Part shown: positions 48,074-56,007 of the stretch, one piece after another | Numbering within the stretch: the stretch's first letter is position 1 | Layout of the letters: each line of letters opens with the position of its first letter | From: Nitratiruptor sp. YY09-18 | GTDB taxonomy: Bacteria > Campylobacterota > Campylobacteria > Campylobacterales > Nitratiruptoraceae | Assembly (NCBI RefSeq): GCF_016593235.1 | Contig: NZ_AP023065.1 | Location: forward strand, 1,178,001-1,242,000 | Reading direction: 5' to 3' | DNA: 64,000 nt | Notes under the pieces: model-generated | The model's database searches: none | The model's input: the letters and a program-made list of their open reading frames with translations, nothing else | What the model was told of the DNA's origin: nothing | Position numbers and translations under genes: made by a program

Positions 48074-48102
48074 ATTTTATTATTTTGATACGCAAAAATC
48101 AA
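48074..48102 (-). promoter_or_regulatory. Sigma-70-like promoter for fliG
   Basis: Minus strand: TTGATT (plus-strand 48097-48102), 17 bases, then TAAAAT (48074-48079), about 30 bases upstream of the fliG ATG. It physically overlaps the divergent sigma-28-type promoter at 48093-48118. Confidence 0.6.
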
Positions 48103-48118
48103 CTACAATTTCCGATAA
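48093..48118 (+). promoter_or_regulatory. Sigma-28-type promoter for the chemotaxis operon
   Basis: CAAA (48093-48096), 14 bases, then TCCGATAA (48111-48118), matching 7 of 8 positions of the GCCGATAA -10 and 3 of 4 of the -35, with a spacer one base short of the ideal. It lies 27 bases before the first gene. Weaker than the other two FliA sites, so somewhat less certain. Confidence 0.6.
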
Positions 48119-48144
48119 TGCTTAAAACCACAAAAGGGTTATCC

Positions 48145-48489
48145 ATGGAGAAGCACGATTTTGAGAACAAAAACCTTGAAATTGCCGCAACACATCTAAG
48201 AACAAGCAAAGAGGAGTTAAACCAGTGTGCAAACACTATTTTTGCAACACTCCAAAAACTCGAAAATATTGCGGATGAAAAGACGAAAAATGAGATTCTA
48301 GATGCTGTTGCTGCTTTACAGATGCAAGATATTATTACGCAGCGTCTTGATAAAGTTGCCTCTTTTTTGGCAATGATCGATAAAGAGGTAGCACTGCAAA
48401 GCGATAGCCAGTTTCTCGATCAGTTTGCCTGGGAAAATGAAGTAGACCAAGATGATGTAGACGCACTTTTTAATGAGTACAAAGGATAA
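48145..48489 (+). CDS. Short CheZ-like protein (putative CheY phosphatase)
   Basis: A 114-residue helical protein starting at the ATG at 48145 behind AAAGGG (the frame opens earlier at 48085). LDAVAALQMQDIITQRLDKVASFLAMID carries a D-x-x-x-Q pair (Asp62, Gln66), the spacing of the CheZ active site (Asp143/Gln147 in E. coli). The end, DQDDVDALFNEYKG, resembles the CheZ C-terminal peptide that binds CheY. It lacks the long four-helix extension of enteric CheZ. It is the first gene of the operon with cheA, cheW, cheV and cheY, which fits a phosphatase. Homology is remote; it could instead be an adaptor that shares the CheY-binding tail. Confidence 0.6.
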   Translation: MEKHDFENKNLEIAATHLRTSKEELNQCANTIFATLQKLENIADEKTKNEILDAVAALQMQDIITQRLDKVASFLAMIDKEVALQSDSQFLDQFAWENEVDQDDVDALFNEYKG

Positions 48490-48492
48490 TGC

Positions 48493-50547
48493 ATGCATAT
48501 TAATATCACTGAAGATATGCAAGAGATTCTCGAAGAGTTTATACAGGAGGCTGAAGAGATTTTAGAAAATCTCGACCAAGAGCTCATCGAACTAGAGAAC
48601 GACCCTACAAACAAAGATCTCCTCAACCAGATCTTTCGAGGAATTCATACACTCAAAGGTGGAGCTGGATTTTTAGGACTCGAGAGTATTATAAACCTTG
48701 CCCACGTGATTGAGAGTATCTTTGATAAACTGCGCAATGATCAGATGCAACTCGATTCTAATAAGATGGATATCATCTTGGAGGGGATCGATATACTTAA
48801 AAACTCTCTACGTTCACTCCAAGAGACGCATGAGATACCAGACCCTGAAGATATCAGTGATATAATGCAAAAGCTTCACGATCTTTTAGAAGACAAACTT
48901 CCCGAAACACAAGAGCAACCAAAAAGAGATGAACAATCAGCAATTGAGCAACAAAATGATGCTTCTGCGCAAGGCAATCATGAAGAAATGCAAAACGAAA
49001 GCCCCAAGGAAGAGGATAGCGATTTTGAGATCATATTCAAAGATGATGTAGATCCTGCTGTAGCTGAACTTATCAAAAAGTATCCAAATAAAAATATGAG
49101 CCAAATTCTCGATGAGCTTATCCTCCTTCCACCTGAAGAGCGGGATATGGATCTCATTCTCAAGCTCGATGAACTTATCTCCCAAGGTAAAGATATAGAT
49201 GATTTGGTACTAGAAAAGAGGCCAAAACCGAAAAAAGAAGCTCAAAAAGAAGAGCCTAAGCCTGCTCCCAAGCCGCAAAAAGCTCCTGAACCTGTAGCTG
49301 TGCAAAAAGCGGCTCCAAAACCAGCACAGCAACCTGTAAAGAAAAAAGAGGAGACTGAGACGATTCGCATCGATATCGATCGTATCTCCACACTCATGAA
49401 TCTCGTAGGAGAGCTTGTTCTTGATCGTAACCGTATCGTCAAACTCACTTCACGGTTTCGTACAAACTGCGGTGATCTCGAAGCCATCGAAGAGCTTAAT
49501 GAAGCGATAGCGGGTATGAGCAGGAGTGTATCTGATCTGCAAGAAGTGGTCATGAAGCTACGCATGCAGCCAGTGAAGCGTATTTTTAGCAAATTCCCGC
49601 GCATTGTAAGAGATTTGGCAAAAAAGGTTGGCAAAAAGATCAATCTCGAGCTCGAAGGTGAAGATACAGAGATCGATAGAAGTATACTCAATCAGCTAGA
49701 AGACCCACTCATTCACCTTGTGCGCAACTCCATAGATCATGGAATTGAGCCACCCCAGGATCGTGTAGCCAAAGGTAAACCCGAATATGGCACTATAATC
49801 CTCTCAGCTTTGCAAGAGGGTGATAGAATTATTGTGAGTATAGAAGATGATGGTCGCGGAATAGACCCAGAGAAGGTCAAACAAAAAGCAATAGAAAAAG
49901 GACTCATCAAACCTGAGCAAGCTGAGCAGATGAGTGACAAAGAGGTATTTGAGCTTATCTTTTTGCCTGGATTTAGCACTGCAAGCGAGGTGAGTGATCT
50001 GAGTGGTCGTGGTGTTGGTATGGATGTAGTTGCAAATACTATCCATGCCCTCCGCGGCGATATAGAGATCGATAGTAAACTTGGCAAAGGGACAAAAATC
50101 ACGATGAAATTGCCACTTACTGTAGCAATTATCCGCACACTTATGGTAGGAGTCAATGATCGAATCTTCGCAATACCGCTTTTTAGCGTTGTAGAGATTA
50201 TAAAATATCGCCCCCAAGATATCAAAGATGTAGGAACATACAAATCCTTGATGCTTAGAGACGATGTCTATCTCTTCTTCCATCTCAATGAACTCTTCGA
50301 TATCGAGAGCGAAAACGAAAACAAGTTTGTCATCATAATCAATATTGGCGAGAAACATATCGCTATAGCAGTTGATAATCTCTACGGTGAAGAGGAGATT
50401 GTCATCAAACCTCTTGGAGATATGCTCAAAGAGGTAAAAGGAATAGCAGGTGCTACTATTACAGGAGATGGGAAAGTGGTACTCATTTTGGATATTAAAT
50501 CACTCATAGATACAAAGCGTAACGATCTTATAGGAGTCGTTTCATGA
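48493..50547 (+). CDS. cheA: Chemotaxis histidine kinase CheA
   Basis: A 684-residue CheA. The Hpt (P1) domain has GIHTLKGGAGFLG with phospho-His52. An acidic linker and a Pro/Lys/Ala-rich stretch follow, then the dimerisation domain (IDIDRISTLMNLVGELVLDRNRI). The HATPase domain contains LIHLVRNSIDHGIE (N box), VSIEDDGRGIDPEKV (G1) and SDLSGRGVGMDVV (G2). The C-terminal CheW-like domain ends ILDIKSLIDTKRNDLIG. No receiver domain is fused at the C-terminus, unlike the CheA-REC fusion known from Helicobacter and Campylobacter. Four bases overlap cheW. Confidence 0.97.
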   Translation: MHINITEDMQEILEEFIQEAEEILENLDQELIELENDPTNKDLLNQIFRGIHTLKGGAGFLGLESIINLAHVIESIFDKLRNDQMQLDSNKMDIILEGIDILKNSLRSLQETHEIPDPEDISDIMQKLHDLLEDKLPETQEQPKRDEQSAIEQQNDASAQGNHEEMQNESPKEEDSDFEIIFKDDVDPAVAELIKKYPNKNMSQILDELILLPPEERDMDLILKLDELISQGKDIDDLVLEKRPKPKKEAQKEEPKPAPKPQKAPEPVAVQKAAPKPAQQPVKKKEETETIRIDIDRISTLMNLVGELVLDRNRIVKLTSRFRTNCGDLEAIEELNEAIAGMSRSVSDLQEVVMKLRMQPVKRIFSKFPRIVRDLAKKVGKKINLELEGEDTEIDRSILNQLEDPLIHLVRNSIDHGIEPPQDRVAKGKPEYGTIILSALQEGDRIIVSIEDDGRGIDPEKVKQKAIEKGLIKPEQAEQMSDKEVFELIFLPGFSTASEVSDLSGRGVGMDVVANTIHALRGDIEIDSKLGKGTKITMKLPLTVAIIRTLMVGVNDRIFAIPLFSVVEIIKYRPQDIKDVGTYKSLMLRDDVYLFFHLNELFDIESENENKFVIIINIGEKHIAIAVDNLYGEEEIVIKPLGDMLKEVKGIAGATITGDGKVVLILDIKSLIDTKRNDLIGVVS

Positions 50548-51053
50548 AAGATATTGAAGTTTTGGGACTCAGCGAACTTCCTGAAGAGAGTATCAAGGAA
50601 GAGAATCGCGTCATTGCATTTTTGCTCAACAATGAGCTTATTGGTATAGATATTAAAAACATCATCAAAATCACTAAAAAGCTAGAAATCACCCCTGTAC
50701 CAAAAACATCAGAGCATATCTTGGGTGTAATGAATCTGCGGGGAAACATTGTGCCTGTTGTCAATGTCAAGAAAATGCTCAATCTCCCTCATGCAGATGA
50801 TATCAATGAACAAGATCTCATTCTCATAATTGATTCAGAGATGGGACATGTGGGTCTCGTTATTGATAAAGTTGTAGGTGCAATTACAATTCAAGAAGAG
50901 GATATTCAGCCTGCACCTATTAACTCTATCGGTATCGATTCGCAATATATTATTGGTGTAATAGTGACTCATGAAGAGATAGGAAACAAAAATCTCCTTA
51001 TCCTTCTTGATATTGATAAGCTCTTCTATAATGATGAAGAGAAAGAGGAATAG
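50544..51053 (+). CDS. cheW: Chemotaxis coupling protein CheW
   Basis: A 169-residue CheW: NRVIAFLLNNELIGIDIKNIIKITKKLEITPVPKTSEHILGVMNLRGNIVPVVNVKKML is the conserved core, and GLVIDKVVGAITIQEEDIQPAP follows. It couples receptors to CheA. It overlaps cheA by four bases and precedes cheV by nine. Confidence 0.96.
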   Translation: MKDIEVLGLSELPEESIKEENRVIAFLLNNELIGIDIKNIIKITKKLEITPVPKTSEHILGVMNLRGNIVPVVNVKKMLNLPHADDINEQDLILIIDSEMGHVGLVIDKVVGAITIQEEDIQPAPINSIGIDSQYIIGVIVTHEEIGNKNLLILLDIDKLFYNDEEKEE

Positions 51054-51062
51054 AGGTTTGCT

Positions 51063-52022
51063 ATGAGAAAAAAAGAGTACTTGCCAAAGATTTTAGAAAC
51101 TGGAGCAAACGAGCTTGAGGTTATTGACTTTCGTATGTATGAAGAGCTCGAAGATGGCACGATTTACGAGTGGGTGCTTGGTGTAAATGTTGCGAAAGTC
51201 AAAGAGGTAATACAAAGACCCAGTAATATTTTTCGCTCACCTGGTATGCCACCAGAAGTTGAAGGACTCGCAAAAATCCGTGAAGAGGTTATCCCTATCG
51301 TGAACCTTGCTAAATGGATGAAAATAAAGGTACCGCAGCAAAAAAGCGATAAGTATGTCATAGTGATGGAATTTTTGCGTGAAGTCATAGGAGTTCTTGT
51401 TCATGAAGCAAAGAGGATTCGCCGTATAAAATGGGCCGATATCAAAAAACCTCCTGCAAGTATCGATGAAAAGCTTGGCGGCAAAGTAGTAGGAGTTATT
51501 GAGATAGAAGATGGACAACTCCTACTGCTTCTTGATTTTGAAGGAATTCTAGATGAGCTTGGAATGATCAAAGTCTTCAACGTAGAAGATAAAGAGGAGT
51601 ATGCGAAGAGTGAAAAATCTTACAATATCTTAATTTTAGATGATAGTCCAGTTGCACGCAAGATCATACGTAAGATCTTGGAAAAAGATGGACATAAAGT
51701 CTATGAGGTAGAGAGTGGAATCGAAGGATTGGAATATCTTGAGAGCTTGGCGCAGCAAGCAGAGCAAGAGGGAGTAGATATAACAGATAAATTGCAGCTA
51801 ATTATTAGCGATATAGAGATGCCTGGTATGGATGGTCTCACATTTACCAAAAAGGTCAAAGAGCATCCTGTATTTTCTAAAATCCCAATTGTTATCAACA
51901 CATCACTCTCAGATAAAGCAACAGTAGATAAGACACGCTTTGTCAATGCAGATGCACACCTTGTAAAATTTGACACAAAAGATCTCTTACATATTGTAAG
52001 AGAGTATGCGATAAAGAAATAG
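51063..52022 (+). CDS. cheV: Chemotaxis protein CheV (CheW-receiver fusion)
   Basis: A 319-residue protein. The CheW-like domain (residues ~10-175) has PSNIFRSPGMPPEVEGLAKIREEVIPIVNLAKWM. The receiver domain (~190-319) has YNILILDDSPVARKII, LIISDIEMPGMDG with the phospho-Asp, and HLVKFDTKDL with the conserved Lys. CheV proteins act as adaptable couplers, which matters in a system where no cheR or cheB is visible nearby. An AGAGG-type ribosome site precedes the ATG. Confidence 0.95.
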   Translation: MRKKEYLPKILETGANELEVIDFRMYEELEDGTIYEWVLGVNVAKVKEVIQRPSNIFRSPGMPPEVEGLAKIREEVIPIVNLAKWMKIKVPQQKSDKYVIVMEFLREVIGVLVHEAKRIRRIKWADIKKPPASIDEKLGGKVVGVIEIEDGQLLLLLDFEGILDELGMIKVFNVEDKEEYAKSEKSYNILILDDSPVARKIIRKILEKDGHKVYEVESGIEGLEYLESLAQQAEQEGVDITDKLQLIISDIEMPGMDGLTFTKKVKEHPVFSKIPIVINTSLSDKATVDKTRFVNADAHLVKFDTKDLLHIVREYAIKK

Positions 52023-52034
52023 GAGGAAGATTCA

Positions 52035-52433
52035 ATGGCATTACCCGAGAGAAATATAAAAATTTTGATAGTCGATGATGCACCCATGATCAGACGCATT
52101 CTCAAAAACCTCCTCAAAGAGATGGGATTTACAAATCTAGAAGAGGCTGAAGATGGTATGGTTGCACTGCAAAAACTCAGAAGTCAAAAGTTTGACTTTG
52201 TCATAACTGACTGGAATATGCCAAACCTCACAGGTATTGAACTTGTTCAAGAGATTCGCAAAGACCCAAATCTCAAACATATACCGATAATGATGGTGAC
52301 AGCAGAAGCAAAAAAAGAGAATATCATTCTCGCTCTCAAAAGTGGAGTCAATAACTATATTGTCAAACCATTTACGCCAGAAAATGTCAAAAACAAAATA
52401 GAAGCAATTTTTAGCGCTAAATCAAAAAAATAG
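52035..52433 (+). CDS. cheY: Chemotaxis response regulator CheY
   Basis: A 132-residue stand-alone receiver. All active-site residues are in place: Asp14-Asp15 (ILIVDDAPM), phospho-Asp59 (FVITDWNMP), Thr89 (MMVTAEA) and Lys111 (IVKPFT). No output domain is present. It should bind FliM to change motor rotation. AGGAGGA precedes the ATG. Confidence 0.97.
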   Translation: MALPERNIKILIVDDAPMIRRILKNLLKEMGFTNLEEAEDGMVALQKLRSQKFDFVITDWNMPNLTGIELVQEIRKDPNLKHIPIMMVTAEAKKENIILALKSGVNNYIVKPFTPENVKNKIEAIFSAKSKK

Positions 52434-52442
52434 GAGTCAACA

Positions 52443-53750
52443 ATGAGTAAAAAAGAGAACAGTATCCCTTGCGAAGATGCACTCAAAGCTTGCCAAAAAG
52501 AAAAGGATGCCCTCATAAAAAAAGATAAAGAGCGCTGGATAATAAGTGGTGAGAAACTTGCCGAAGGTATTTTCAACGCAGCTCTTGTCAAAACCGGCAT
52601 CTATCGCTTCAAAAACCGTTTTGCAAATTTCAATGAATCTTTTGGCAAGATCACAAAAACAAGTGATGAGAGTCTCAAAATTACAGATACTATTATGCAA
52701 AGTATTGCTGAAATTGAAAAAGCACAGAAAGAGACTACCAACGAGATAGATAATGGTGAGACAATTCTCAATAAAACAAACCGTGATATCCTCGATTCAG
52801 TCAAGGCGATGGATAACCTCACAAAAACTACAGAGGAGCTCAAACGTAAAATCAGTGGGATCGATCATGTCCTCAATGTTATACTAGAAATTACTGAGCA
52901 GACAAACCTCCTCGCTCTCAATGCTGCCATCGAAGCAGCAAGAGCTGGAGAAGTGGGAAGAGGCTTTGCTGTTGTTGCAGATGAAGTGCGTAAACTAGCT
53001 GAAAAAACAAGTAAGAGCGCAAGTGAGATACGCGAAGTGACAATTTCAGTAATGGATGAAATGGACAACACCTCAAAAGTTGTCAATAACGCTAAAACTA
53101 TTGTAGAAGATAGTGCTGAGGGAGCCAGTGGTGTTCTTAAAACTTTCCATAAAATCAAGCAAAATAGTGACAACGTGACAAATCTCATTAAAAGGCAGAT
53201 CGATCATACAAATAAGCAAAAAGAACATATCTACACATTTAGTCAAGAGATTCAAAAACTCAACGAAGACCTCAAACAAACACAAGAGCTTGCCAATGTC
53301 ACAGGTTTGAGGATACTCTCTACTATTGATTATATGAAAGAGGGAATCGATAGCTGTGCTGCATATCAAAAAGATGAGGCTGTAACAAAAGTGCTCAATG
53401 CAATTGAAGCTCACTCGATCTATATTACAAATGTAGCAAAAGTTGTTGAAGGCTATCAAGATATCACCCTTAAAGATTTTACTTCATGTGACTATGGTAA
53501 ATGGTTCTACTCTGGTGAAGCTTTTAAAGAGCTTCGTCCTTATGGTGATGAAGTGATAGCAATTTTGGAGGGTACCGAAGATATCCATAAAGATATTCAC
53601 AATCTGGCCCATGAACTTGTAAGACTCAAGAAAGAAAACAGAATGGATGAAGTTTTTGACAAATTCCATGAGCTCGCAGATACGGCAAGTGAACTTGTCA
53701 AAGAGCTTACAAAAATCTATGCAATCATTGCATCAAAAGAGCTTGATTAA
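52443..53750 (+). CDS. Cytoplasmic chemoreceptor with C-terminal CZB domain (TlpD-like)
   Basis: A 435-residue receptor with no membrane segment. The signalling tip is canonical ([47 protein letters not shown]). The C-terminal part has the chemoreceptor zinc-binding (CZB) pattern: [29 protein letters not shown] and [14 protein letters not shown], giving His, Cys, His and His ligands. This is the layout of Helicobacter TlpD, a soluble receptor tied to energy or oxidant sensing. The N-terminal ~50 residues contain two Cys ([11 protein letters not shown]). It follows cheY by nine bases, so it is likely made with the core signalling proteins. Confidence 0.92.
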
Positions 53751-53759
53751 AGGCTAACT

Positions 53760-55205
53760 ATGATTTATAAAAGCATCTATAACAAAAGAGGAATAGAGCC
53801 CAAAAATAGTGAATCACCTTTTGAGCTTCATGAGCTCTTTTTCTCTATTACTGATCCAAAAGGGATAATACTTACAAGTAATGATGTTTTCCAAAGAGTC
53901 TCAAAATTTGATTTTGAAGAGCTTATAAGAAAACCGCACAATGTCATTCGTCATCCAGATATGCCGCGAGCAATATTCAAAGCTTTGTGGGATACTATAC
54001 AACAGGGTAAACCTTTTATAGGCTATGTGAAGAATATGGCCAAAGATGGATCTTACTACTGGGTTTTAGCCGCAGTCTATCCGGTAATTGACAAAGAGGG
54101 CAATATCAAAAGTTATATTTCTTTACGACTCAAACCCTCCTCAAAACTCTTTGAAATAATCCCGCCTCTTTACAAAGAACTCTTAGAGCATGAACTCAAA
54201 AACGATATAGATGCAACACTAGAACTACTTGGTAAACGCCTCAAAGAGCTAGGCTTTGAGAGATATGACGATTTTGCAAAGCATGCATTTTTCCAAGAGA
54301 TCTTGAGTCGTGAAAAGATCTTGGCCAATAAGAGTGTACAAAACTGCCAAGTTGATTTGACTAAGGTGAATGAAGAAAATATAGAATTTATCGATCTTCT
54401 TTGTAATCTCCAGACTATCTTCTTCCGCATCAATCGCTACTTCAATGAGATTTTTAGCAAGGTCAATCTCTTCTTGAATCTCAATGATGAGCTCAATAAA
54501 AAGAGTAAGTTCATCTATGAACTTGCCGAAGATATCCGCTTGCTCTCTCTCAATGCCTCTATAGAGAGCTACAAAGTCAAGAAAGAGGGAGTGAGTTTCT
54601 CAACTCTCTCGCATGAGATGCGCAAAAATGCAGAGCTATGTGAGAGAAAGATCATACAGCTAAGTGAAATCATTGAAGATACCAAAAAAGATATCGAAGA
54701 TATAGGATTTAATATCCTCACATCCAAACTCATTATTGAGATGATAAATTTTTTCATCAAAGAGATGATTACAAACCTCTCTCATACCAATGTTAGCAAT
54801 GAGAAGAAAGAGGAGGTAGTCAATAATATCACTAGTCTTTTTAACTTGCTCATATCATATGCACAAAATCTTTCTAAAAATGTCTATGCATCAAAAAGTC
54901 AGCTGCGCTCAATGTTTTACAATATCCAAGAGCTCAATGTGCTCATCAACAGACTTGATTTCATTCATATAAACGGTCTTATTGAATCAGCACATACCAA
55001 AGAGGAAGGTGGTGGTTTTACTATTATCTTTTCACAAATGCTTAAGCTCATTGAAGCAGCAAAGCAAGAGATTATCAATTTAGAAGTGAGCATTACAAGT
55101 GCAAATGAAGAGAACCTCACAGTCAACCTTATCACCGATGTAGCGCAGCAAAAGATCGCAAAACTGCAAAAGCAGTATGCTGATATTTTCCAAAAAGTTA
55201 GCTAA
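53760..55205 (+). CDS. PAS protein with two degenerate chemoreceptor-tip motifs
   Basis: A 481-residue soluble protein. Residues ~20-135 are an Aer-type PAS domain (KPHNVIRHPDMPRAIFKALWDTIQQGKPFIGYVKNMAKDGSYYWVLA). Then comes a long helical region with two segments that follow the receptor hairpin-tip pattern without its invariant residues: LAEDIRLLSLNASIESYKVKKEGVSFSTLSHEMRK (about 255-289) and LINRLDFIHINGLIESAHTKEEGGGFTIIFSQMLKL (about 395-430). Neither keeps the usual [11 protein letters not shown]...[10 protein letters not shown] residues, so normal CheA/CheW binding is doubtful. It is the last gene of the chemotaxis operon, nine bases after the CZB receptor. It may redox-tune that receptor or antagonise the array. 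Its 3' end overlaps the convergent ParA-like gene by eight bases. Confidence 0.75.
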   Translation: MIYKSIYNKRGIEPKNSESPFELHELFFSITDPKGIILTSNDVFQRVSKFDFEELIRKPHNVIRHPDMPRAIFKALWDTIQQGKPFIGYVKNMAKDGSYYWVLAAVYPVIDKEGNIKSYISLRLKPSSKLFEIIPPLYKELLEHELKNDIDATLELLGKRLKELGFERYDDFAKHAFFQEILSREKILANKSVQNCQVDLTKVNEENIEFIDLLCNLQTIFFRINRYFNEIFSKVNLFLNLNDELNKKSKFIYELAEDIRLLSLNASIESYKVKKEGVSFSTLSHEMRKNAELCERKIIQLSEIIEDTKKDIEDIGFNILTSKLIIEMINFFIKEMITNLSHTNVSNEKKEEVVNNITSLFNLLISYAQNLSKNVYASKSQLRSMFYNIQELNVLINRLDFIHINGLIESAHTKEEGGGFTIIFSQMLKLIEAAKQEIINLEVSITSANEENLTVNLITDVAQQKIAKLQKQYADIFQKVS

Positions 55206-56007
55206 CTTCTAATACCTCATCAAGCTTGGCAAAAGCCGGCTTGAGCACACGCTCGCTATACTTTTCGCAATCAGTTTTGAGAGATTTTTTGAAGCTAAGG
55301 CGCTTTATCTCATCTTTGCTTGCACCTTTGGCAATAGCATCTTTGAGCTCTTTGTCTATATCCATCGGCTCTTTTGCAAACTCCCAAAGTGTAAGCCCAA
55401 ATGCTCTTGAATACTTGATCGCATCACTATCAGCTAGCACGAGATAGTTGCGATCTTTCTCATCCACATAATTGATGAGGCCCTTGGTATCAAAAAAGCC
55501 ATACTTATCGCCTAAGAAGATATCAAATTGCGATTCGAGCTCTCTTGTCTCATTCCAACGATTGAGAGCAAAGATAGTCTTGATATCTGGATTTGCATTT
55601 TTCATGCGCTGATAGATATTGAGTGCACTGGTAGCATCAAGTTCACCATCCATGAGGGGAATAACAACTGCATCGAGTGCATAGATCATGCCGCTATCTA
55701 CCAAAGCATCCATGATATAAACTGCTGTCTTATTTGCTCCAATATCCATGACGATATTGTTCTCTAGCAGCAAAATATCTCGCAGCTCTTCACGTAGATC
55801 CTGCCCAGCTACGCCGATACGCTCTAGCCAGACAAGTTTACTCTTTTCAAAAGAGATACTATCCTCATTCTCATCGTCAAATTCAAAAAAAGATACAGGA
55901 TTTTGCGATTTTTGGTAGAGATAGGGAGCAATGAGCTGCATACTGATGGTGCTTTTTCCTACACCACCTTTTGTGTTGATGACAGCTACTTTATAGATTT
56001 TTTGCAT
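55198..56007 (-). CDS. ParA/MinD-type ATPase next to the chemotaxis operon
   Basis: A 269-residue P-loop ATPase with deviant Walker A (VINTKGGVGKSTISMQL), a Walker A' region (NIVMDIGANKTAVYIMDALVDSG) and a conserved-looking AVVIPLMDGELDATSALNIYQRM. No parB or parS is visible. ParA-family proteins that sit beside chemotaxis genes (ParC in Vibrio, PpfA in Rhodobacter) position receptor arrays; the adjacent soluble receptor and PAS protein make a PpfA-like role possible. It could instead be a stand-alone plasmid-type ParA. The ATG overlaps one arm of an 11-bp inverted repeat that also covers the -10 region. Confidence 0.75.
   Translation of the reverse strand: MQKIYKVAVINTKGGVGKSTISMQLIAPYLYQKSQNPVSFFEFDDENEDSISFEKSKLVWLERIGVAGQDLREELRDILLLENNIVMDIGANKTAVYIMDALVDSGMIYALDAVVIPLMDGELDATSALNIYQRMKNANPDIKTIFALNRWNETRELESQFDIFLGDKYGFFDTKGLINYVDEKDRNYLVLADSDAIKYSRAFGLTLWEFAKEPMDIDKELKDAIAKGASKDEIKRLSFKKSLKTDCEKYSERVLKPAFAKLDEVLEVS

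What the first reader, a model, noticed from the sequence alone, without database searches (positions are those of the whole stretch)
53760..55205. PAS protein with two tandem degenerate receptor-tip motifs in the chemotaxis operon
The product has an Aer-type PAS domain and then two segments (nt 54522-54639 and 54942-55065) that follow the chemoreceptor hairpin-tip heptad pattern but lose its invariant residues. A receptor normally has one tip; two in one chain is unusual, and the losses suggest it does not engage CheA/CheW in the standard way. As a co-expressed neighbour of an intact CZB receptor, it could be an array antagonist, a redox-sensing partner, or a structural spacer. Sequence observation is direct; function is inference.
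Basis: partly seen in the sequence, partly recalled or inferred. Interest (0 to 1): 0.7.

Follow-up and report, generated by a model that had tools for sequence, protein, structure and literature searches.

The report
Two-tipped single-chain PAS chemoreceptor
A soluble bacterial sensor with a flavin-type redox domain carries, in one protein chain, two different copies of the chemoreceptor tip that normally come from two identical subunits, so it looks like a natural 'receptor dimer in one chain' in a chemotaxis operon of a Nitratiruptor-type bacterium.

Summary
The 481-aa product has an Aer-type PAS domain with nearly all FAD-contact residues kept, then two chemoreceptor tip motifs (residues 253-296 and 393-436). 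Tip 1 matches PF00015 just below the cut-off. Tip 2 is invisible to PF00015 but matches a chemoreceptor profile in the correct register by profile-profile comparison. The tips are not decayed: they are the most conserved part of the protein (35/44 and 28/44 positions invariant in 18 orthologues, against 47/103 in the PAS). The turns are 140 residues apart, the four arms are similar in length, and indels in 37 homologues fall only at the three predicted turns. AlphaFold gives a single-chain, four-helix, up-down-up-down bundle with both tips at the same end (pLDDT about 72). Best reading: a natural single-chain pseudo-dimer of the receptor signalling domain with two specialised tips, giving redox input to the array. 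This differs from DosM, whose two tips sit at opposite ends. The gene closes the cheZ-like-A-W-V-Y-CZB-receptor operon in four relatives read in full. A second family with the same architecture sits in a different chemotaxis operon, so array function is likely. Binding to CheA/CheW and stoichiometry are untested.

The parts
53760..55205 (+). whole gene: PAS + single-chain double-hairpin (481 aa)
   Evidence: ORF; orthologues in all 11 sampled genomes of the family (this one included)
53826..54134 (+). Aer-type PAS (residues 23-125), predicted FAD-binding redox sensor
   Evidence: PF08447; Aer PAS 8dik; FAD contacts G35, H60, R64, W77, N92, R123 invariant in family A (contacts from PMC9668731)
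54135..54329 (+). post-PAS helices (126-190); PAS plus these helices resembles short stand-alone CetB-like PAS proteins
   Evidence: AF2 helices 129-188; class-wide hits over about 13-173 in about 160-210-aa frames
54372..54515 (+). arm N1 of hairpin 1 (205-252)
   Evidence: AF2; conservation
54516..54647 (+). tip 1 (253-296), turn near 275
   Evidence: PF00015; hhalign; 35/44 positions invariant
54648..54779 (+). arm C1 (297-340)
   Evidence: AF2 helix 278-340
54780..54812 (+). middle reversal loop (341-351): variable, with 5-9-residue indels between families
   Evidence: AF2 break 341-346
54813..54935 (+). arm N2 (352-392; AF2 helix 347-411)
54936..55067 (+). tip 2 (393-436), turn near 415
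   Evidence: hhalign in register; 28/44 invariant
55068..55175 (+). arm C2 (437-472)
   Evidence: AF2 helix 418-472
52443..53750 (+). canonical soluble CZB chemoreceptor, directly upstream (about 10-nt gap)
   Evidence: PF00015 1e-37 and CZB 4e-9; CZB kept in relatives
52035..52433 (+). cheY
   Evidence: sequence; synteny
51063..52022 (+). cheV (CheW + receiver)
50544..51053 (+). cheW
48493..50547 (+). cheA, the only CheW-domain kinase in the genome
48085..48489 (+). small CheZ-like protein (QDIITQR motif), 134 aa
   Evidence: sequence reading; no Pfam hit (inference)

Best explanation
It is a soluble, Aer/CetB-like redox sensor whose output module is a single-chain pseudo-dimer of a chemoreceptor signalling domain. 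A FAD-binding PAS (inferred from residues) reads the cell's redox state. Behind it, hairpin 1 (205-340, tip 1) and hairpin 2 (347-472, tip 2) pack in cis as one antiparallel four-helix bundle about 10 heptads long, with both tips at the same end. They take the places that two identical subunits hold in an ordinary receptor dimer. Because the two tips are encoded separately they have diverged into two fixed, different sequences, so each chain is a built-in heterodimer. Most likely it enters the chemotaxis array next to the CZB receptor at the CheA/CheW/CheV layer and biases CheA with redox state. Shown: architecture, conservation, operon linkage, a second family in another chemotaxis operon. 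Predicted by model: bundle topology. Inferred: FAD, array insertion, direction of the effect on CheA.
For: Both tips in register with canonical receptors. N381-to-N381 spacing exactly 140 in 18/18 orthologues, 131-136 in family B. Indels in 37 homologues over residues 215-445 only at 275, 343-351 and 416-417, i.e. the three turns of an up-down-up-down bundle. AF2 full length (pLDDT 64.5) and the 199-481 fragment (72.5) give helices 235-275, 278-340, 347-411, 418-472; best structural matches of the fragment are designed single-chain four-helix bundles (8d9o Z 17.6, 2.1 A over 194 residues). Tips are the most conserved parts. Aer FAD contacts kept (PMC9668731). No transmembrane-grade segment: the highest KD19 value, 1.51, lies inside arm C1. 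Same gene order in four neighbourhoods read in full; MCP upstream in the others. Family B, with the same architecture, lies between cheR and a kinase-cheD-cheB block in another chemotaxis operon. Engineered single-chain Tsr~Tsr signals and clusters (PMC4692393), so the design is workable.
Against: Model confidence is moderate, from 10 close sequences. A monomer prediction tends to fold any four helices in cis and cannot exclude a homodimer with hairpins paired in trans. Tip 2 is weak as a receptor match. The hairpin-tip residues G390 and E391 of Tsr are changed in tip 1 and in most tip 2 sequences (E391 is Glu in 7/18 tip 2). No interaction data. Arms are shorter than in the neighbouring receptor.
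Confidence: 0.6

Rival explanations
1. DosM-like double-ended receptor: hairpins joined end to end, one tip at each end of a rod, bridging two CheA/CheW layers.
For: DosM is the known natural receptor with two signalling domains, and some Nitratiruptor carry a partial F9 set with DosM (PMC9321776, PMC7534058).
Against: C1 and N2 are not continuous: variable, indel-bearing loop at 343-351 and AF2 reversal. No triple CheW in this genome: only three CheW domains, in CheA, CheW and CheV. PAS input present, whereas 98% of DosM homologues lack sensory domains (PMC9321776).
Confidence: 0.08
2. Conventional homodimer in trans: two chains pair hairpin 1 with hairpin 1' and hairpin 2 with hairpin 2', giving two tethered receptor-like bundles or an eight-helix assembly.
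For: Ordinary receptors and Aer are homodimers; engineered single-chain receptors swap subunits (PMC4692393).
Against: The short loop and equal arms favour cis packing; the AF2 fragment folds as one bundle. Neither is decisive.
Confidence: 0.2
3. Receptor mimic that antagonises or caps the array: its altered tips join trimers or CheW but cannot activate CheA.
For: Changes at R388, G390 and R394 in both tips, and at E391 in tip 1 and most tip 2 sequences. C. jejuni CetZ, a cytoplasmic PAS receptor, opposes CetAB (PMC3558505).
Against: No direct evidence; compatible with the single-chain topology, so it is a rival about sign, not structure.
Confidence: 0.1
4. Helical output domain that left the chemotaxis array and serves another partner, keeping receptor ancestry only.
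For: An orphan family-B copy in this genome lies away from chemotaxis genes; both tips diverged.
Against: Tip conservation above that of the PAS; residence in two different chemotaxis operons.
Confidence: 0.1

Closest known systems
Engineered single-chain Tsr~Tsr receptors (Mowery et al. 2015, PMC4692393)
   Same: two receptor signalling subunits in one chain; shows such a chain can signal and cluster
   Different: engineered, transmembrane, identical canonical tips, long linker; here natural, soluble, unlike tips, about 6-residue loop
[quoted passage not shown] centenum and others, cited in PMC4692393)
   Same: two signalling hairpins in one soluble chain
   Different: according to that paper their function is unknown; not compared by sequence here
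DosM, F9 class (PMC7534058, PMC9321776)
   Same: two signalling domains in one soluble chain in a chemotaxis cluster
   Different: rod with one tip at each end, nearly always without sensory domain; here tips predicted at the same end, with a PAS
Aer, E. coli
   Same: PAS with the same FAD-contact residues and receptor output
   Different: Aer has a membrane anchor, HAMP and one canonical tip
CetA/CetB, C. jejuni (PMC2628428)
   Same: Campylobacterota energy-taxis PAS; PAS plus helices resembles the short stand-alone PAS proteins of the class (CetB identity recalled, not tested)
   Different: CetB is PAS only and works through CetA; here the PAS is fused to its own tip bundle

Membership tests
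MCP signalling domain (PF00015) | score above the Pfam gathering cut-off | tested here: not met
   33.0 against 34.6 bits for this protein; paralogue L002 passes with 36.4; best orthologue E=2e-11
MCP signalling domain (PF00015) | canonical invariant tip (N..LALNAA.EAARAGE.GRGF) | tested here: not met
   both tips altered at R388, R394 and mostly G390; E391 changed in tip 1 and in 11/18 of tip 2
MCP signalling domain (PF00015) | homologous antiparallel hairpin in register | tested here: met
   hhalign 95-96% (tip 1), 47-82% (tip 2)
Aer-type FAD PAS | FAD-contact residues H53, R57, W70, N85, R115 | tested here: met
   H60, R64, W77, N92, R123 invariant in family A (PMC9668731)
Aer | membrane anchor and HAMP | tested here: not met
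   no HAMP hit; max KD19 1.51, in arm C1
DosM / F9 class | two signalling domains in one chain | tested here: met
   (degenerate form)
DosM / F9 class | tips at opposite ends of a continuous rod | tested here: inconclusive
   AF2 and indel pattern point to a reversal loop; no experiment
DosM / F9 class | triple CheW (CheW3) partner in the genome | tested here: not met
   three CheW domains only, in CheA, CheW and CheV
single-chain receptor pseudo-dimer | two hairpins of equal arm length joined by a short loop, tips level | tested here: met
   (prediction and sequence)
single-chain receptor pseudo-dimer | monomeric in solution, binds CheA/CheW | not testable with these tools
   needs protein
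F14 chemosensory class | Nitratiruptor single large flagellar plus chemotaxis cluster | not tested
   orthologues are from Nitratiruptor MAGs and fliM/fliG adjoin cheA; PMC9321776 assigns F14 to this genus; CheA was not classified here

The most novel reading that the evidence does not exclude
A natural obligate 'heterodimeric' chemoreceptor made from one chain, in which one tip has specialised for the trimer axis and the other for the CheA/CheW-facing position, so that the two roles which identical residues must share in ordinary receptors are separated by evolution, with a redox PAS as input.
Probability: 0.3. Interest if true: 0.8.

Novelty: new variant of a known kind. Interest (0 to 1): 0.58.

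Why it matters
In receptor trimers of dimers the two identical subunits sit in different surroundings, one at the trimer axis and one facing CheA/CheW, and it is hard to separate the roles of the same residues (this is why Parkinson's group built single-chain Tsr, PMC4692393). A natural single-chain pair with two separately evolving, strongly conserved tips would show which tip residues belong to which role, and would give a small soluble, possibly monomeric receptor module for structure work.

Tried and rejected
Chance or simple coiled-coil similarity: rejected for tip 1 (0/40 block-shuffles) and unlikely for tip 2 (0/40, 0/40, 1/40). Pseudogene or decay: rejected, tips are the most conserved segments. 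Recent internal duplication: not supported; tip halves match each other only weakly (score 23.7, 2/60 shuffles reach it), so any duplication is old. PDB fold search of the fragment did not rank chemoreceptor tips first (Foldseek 2ch7 at E 0.08; VIA list dominated by generic four-helix bundles): uninformative for such folds because chemoreceptor chains in the PDB are half-bundles. Plasmid search with the C-terminal region: no match. Literature searches for Tsr tip contact residues gave little, so statements on G390, E391 and R388 rest partly on general knowledge and on the reference list of PMC4692393. Other phyla, including Aquificota, the proposed donor of the Nitratiruptor cluster, could not be searched.

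Full report
Observation. The ORF 53760-55205 encodes 481 aa. Residues 23-125 are a PAS domain (PF08447 5e-13) whose closest solved relative is the PAS of E. coli Aer (8dik, 4e-30; about 43% identity in the Foldseek hit). The side chains that touch FAD in Aer (H53, R57, W70, N85, R115; position 28 where glycine stabilises; PMC9668731) correspond to H60, R64, W77, N92, R123 and G35, all invariant in the 11 aligned orthologues. M69 of Aer is Leu here. FAD binding is inferred, not shown.

The two tips. Tip 1 scores 33.0 bits against PF00015 (cut-off 34.6) and all orthologues match. Tip 2 alone does not match PF00015. Profile-profile comparison with 20 canonical receptor hairpins gives 95-96% for tip 1 and 47-82% for tip 2, both exactly in register at the Tsr-N381 position, while reversed alignments score 17 or less. 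When 7-column blocks are permuted, which keeps coiled-coil character, the real score is reached in 0/40 (tip 1), 0/40 and 0/40 (tip 2, family A and A+B) and 1/40 (tip 2, family B).

The losses are specific, not decay. In 18 family-A proteins tip 1 reads RLLSLNASIESYKVKKEGVSFSTLS and tip 2 DFIHINGLIESAHT..GGGFTIIFSQ. N381, E385 and F396 (Tsr numbering) are kept in both; R388 is K and H, G390 mostly K, R394 V and mostly G. The position of N376 is Arg in tip 1 and Asp in tip 2 in all 18, a possible built-in pair. Invariant positions: tip 1 35/44, tip 2 28/44, PAS 47/103, arms about 6-13 of 43-46, middle loop 0/9.

Topology. The N381 positions are 140 residues apart in all 18 and 131-136 apart in family B. 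In an alignment of 37 proteins, indels between residues 215 and 445 occur only at 275 (tip 1 turn), 343-351 and 416-417 (tip 2 turn). AlphaFold on the full chain (pLDDT 64.5) and on 199-481 (72.5) gives helices 235-275, 278-340, 347-411 and 418-472. The best matches are designed single-chain four-helix bundles (Z 17.6, 2.1 A over 194 residues; Z 16.8 for the full model); such Z values for helical bundles show arrangement, not kinship. A chain that goes up-down-up-down with equal arms puts both tips at the same end, as in an ordinary receptor dimer. Caveats: shallow alignment of close sequences, no residue above 90, monomer modelling only.

Context. The gene follows the CZB receptor by about 10 nt and ends an operon cheZ-like, cheA, cheW, cheV, cheY, CZB receptor, this gene; fliG and fliM are divergent upstream, a MinD-like ATPase is convergent downstream. 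The same order is present in four relatives read in full (L071-L074); an MCP gene lies just upstream in the other short loci, with CZB in the five tested. Orthologues came from Nitratiruptor MAGs. In the f8 genomes read (L067-L070) it lies in a different chemotaxis cluster: cheY, cheW, membrane receptor, an 87-aa protein, cheA, cheR, this gene, a HisKA/HATPase protein, cheD, cheB (in L070 two unrelated genes intervene). Two independent chemotaxis neighbourhoods argue for an array role. This genome has a second, orphan copy (C1:100548-101834), three canonical receptors and three CheW domains in CheA, CheW and CheV, hence no F9 triple CheW.

Reading. The simplest account is a natural single-chain pseudo-dimer with a redox PAS. 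[quoted passage not shown] DosM, the studied natural case, is a rod with a tip at each end (PMC7534058); the reversal loop here argues for the other arrangement. Whether the two unlike tips divide the trimer-axis and CheA/CheW roles is the interesting open point, given that one subunit of each dimer faces the axis and the other the periphery (PMC4692393). It is an inference.

Verdict. New variant of a known kind, moderately high interest.

Noticed in passing
G000 C1:100548-101834 (L002, L076): Orphan paralogue of the second family (441 aa) in the same genome, beside a ribosome-small-subunit-GTPase-like gene and away from chemotaxis genes; also in G013 (L075).
   Followed up: partly
L067:9601-10440, L068:7058-7864, L069:9926-10753: In the other family the double-tip gene is followed by a short soluble HisKA/HATPase histidine kinase before cheD-cheB, an unusual member of a chemotaxis operon.
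   Followed up: partly
L067:5053-5313 and equivalents in L068-L070: Conserved 87-aa protein between the receptor and cheA with no Pfam match.
   Followed up: no
window 48085-48489: 134-aa CheZ-like protein with a QDIITQR motif but no Pfam match; much more divergent between relatives (31-49% identity) than its neighbours.
   Followed up: no
window 55198-56007: Convergent MinD/ParA-like ATPase whose end overlaps the end of the double-tip gene by 8 nt; kept downstream in all four relatives read (one carries an extra gene between them).
   Followed up: no
G000 C1:822357-822839 (L049): Membrane chemoreceptor (659 aa) with a cheR gene nearby, outside the main operon.
   Followed up: no
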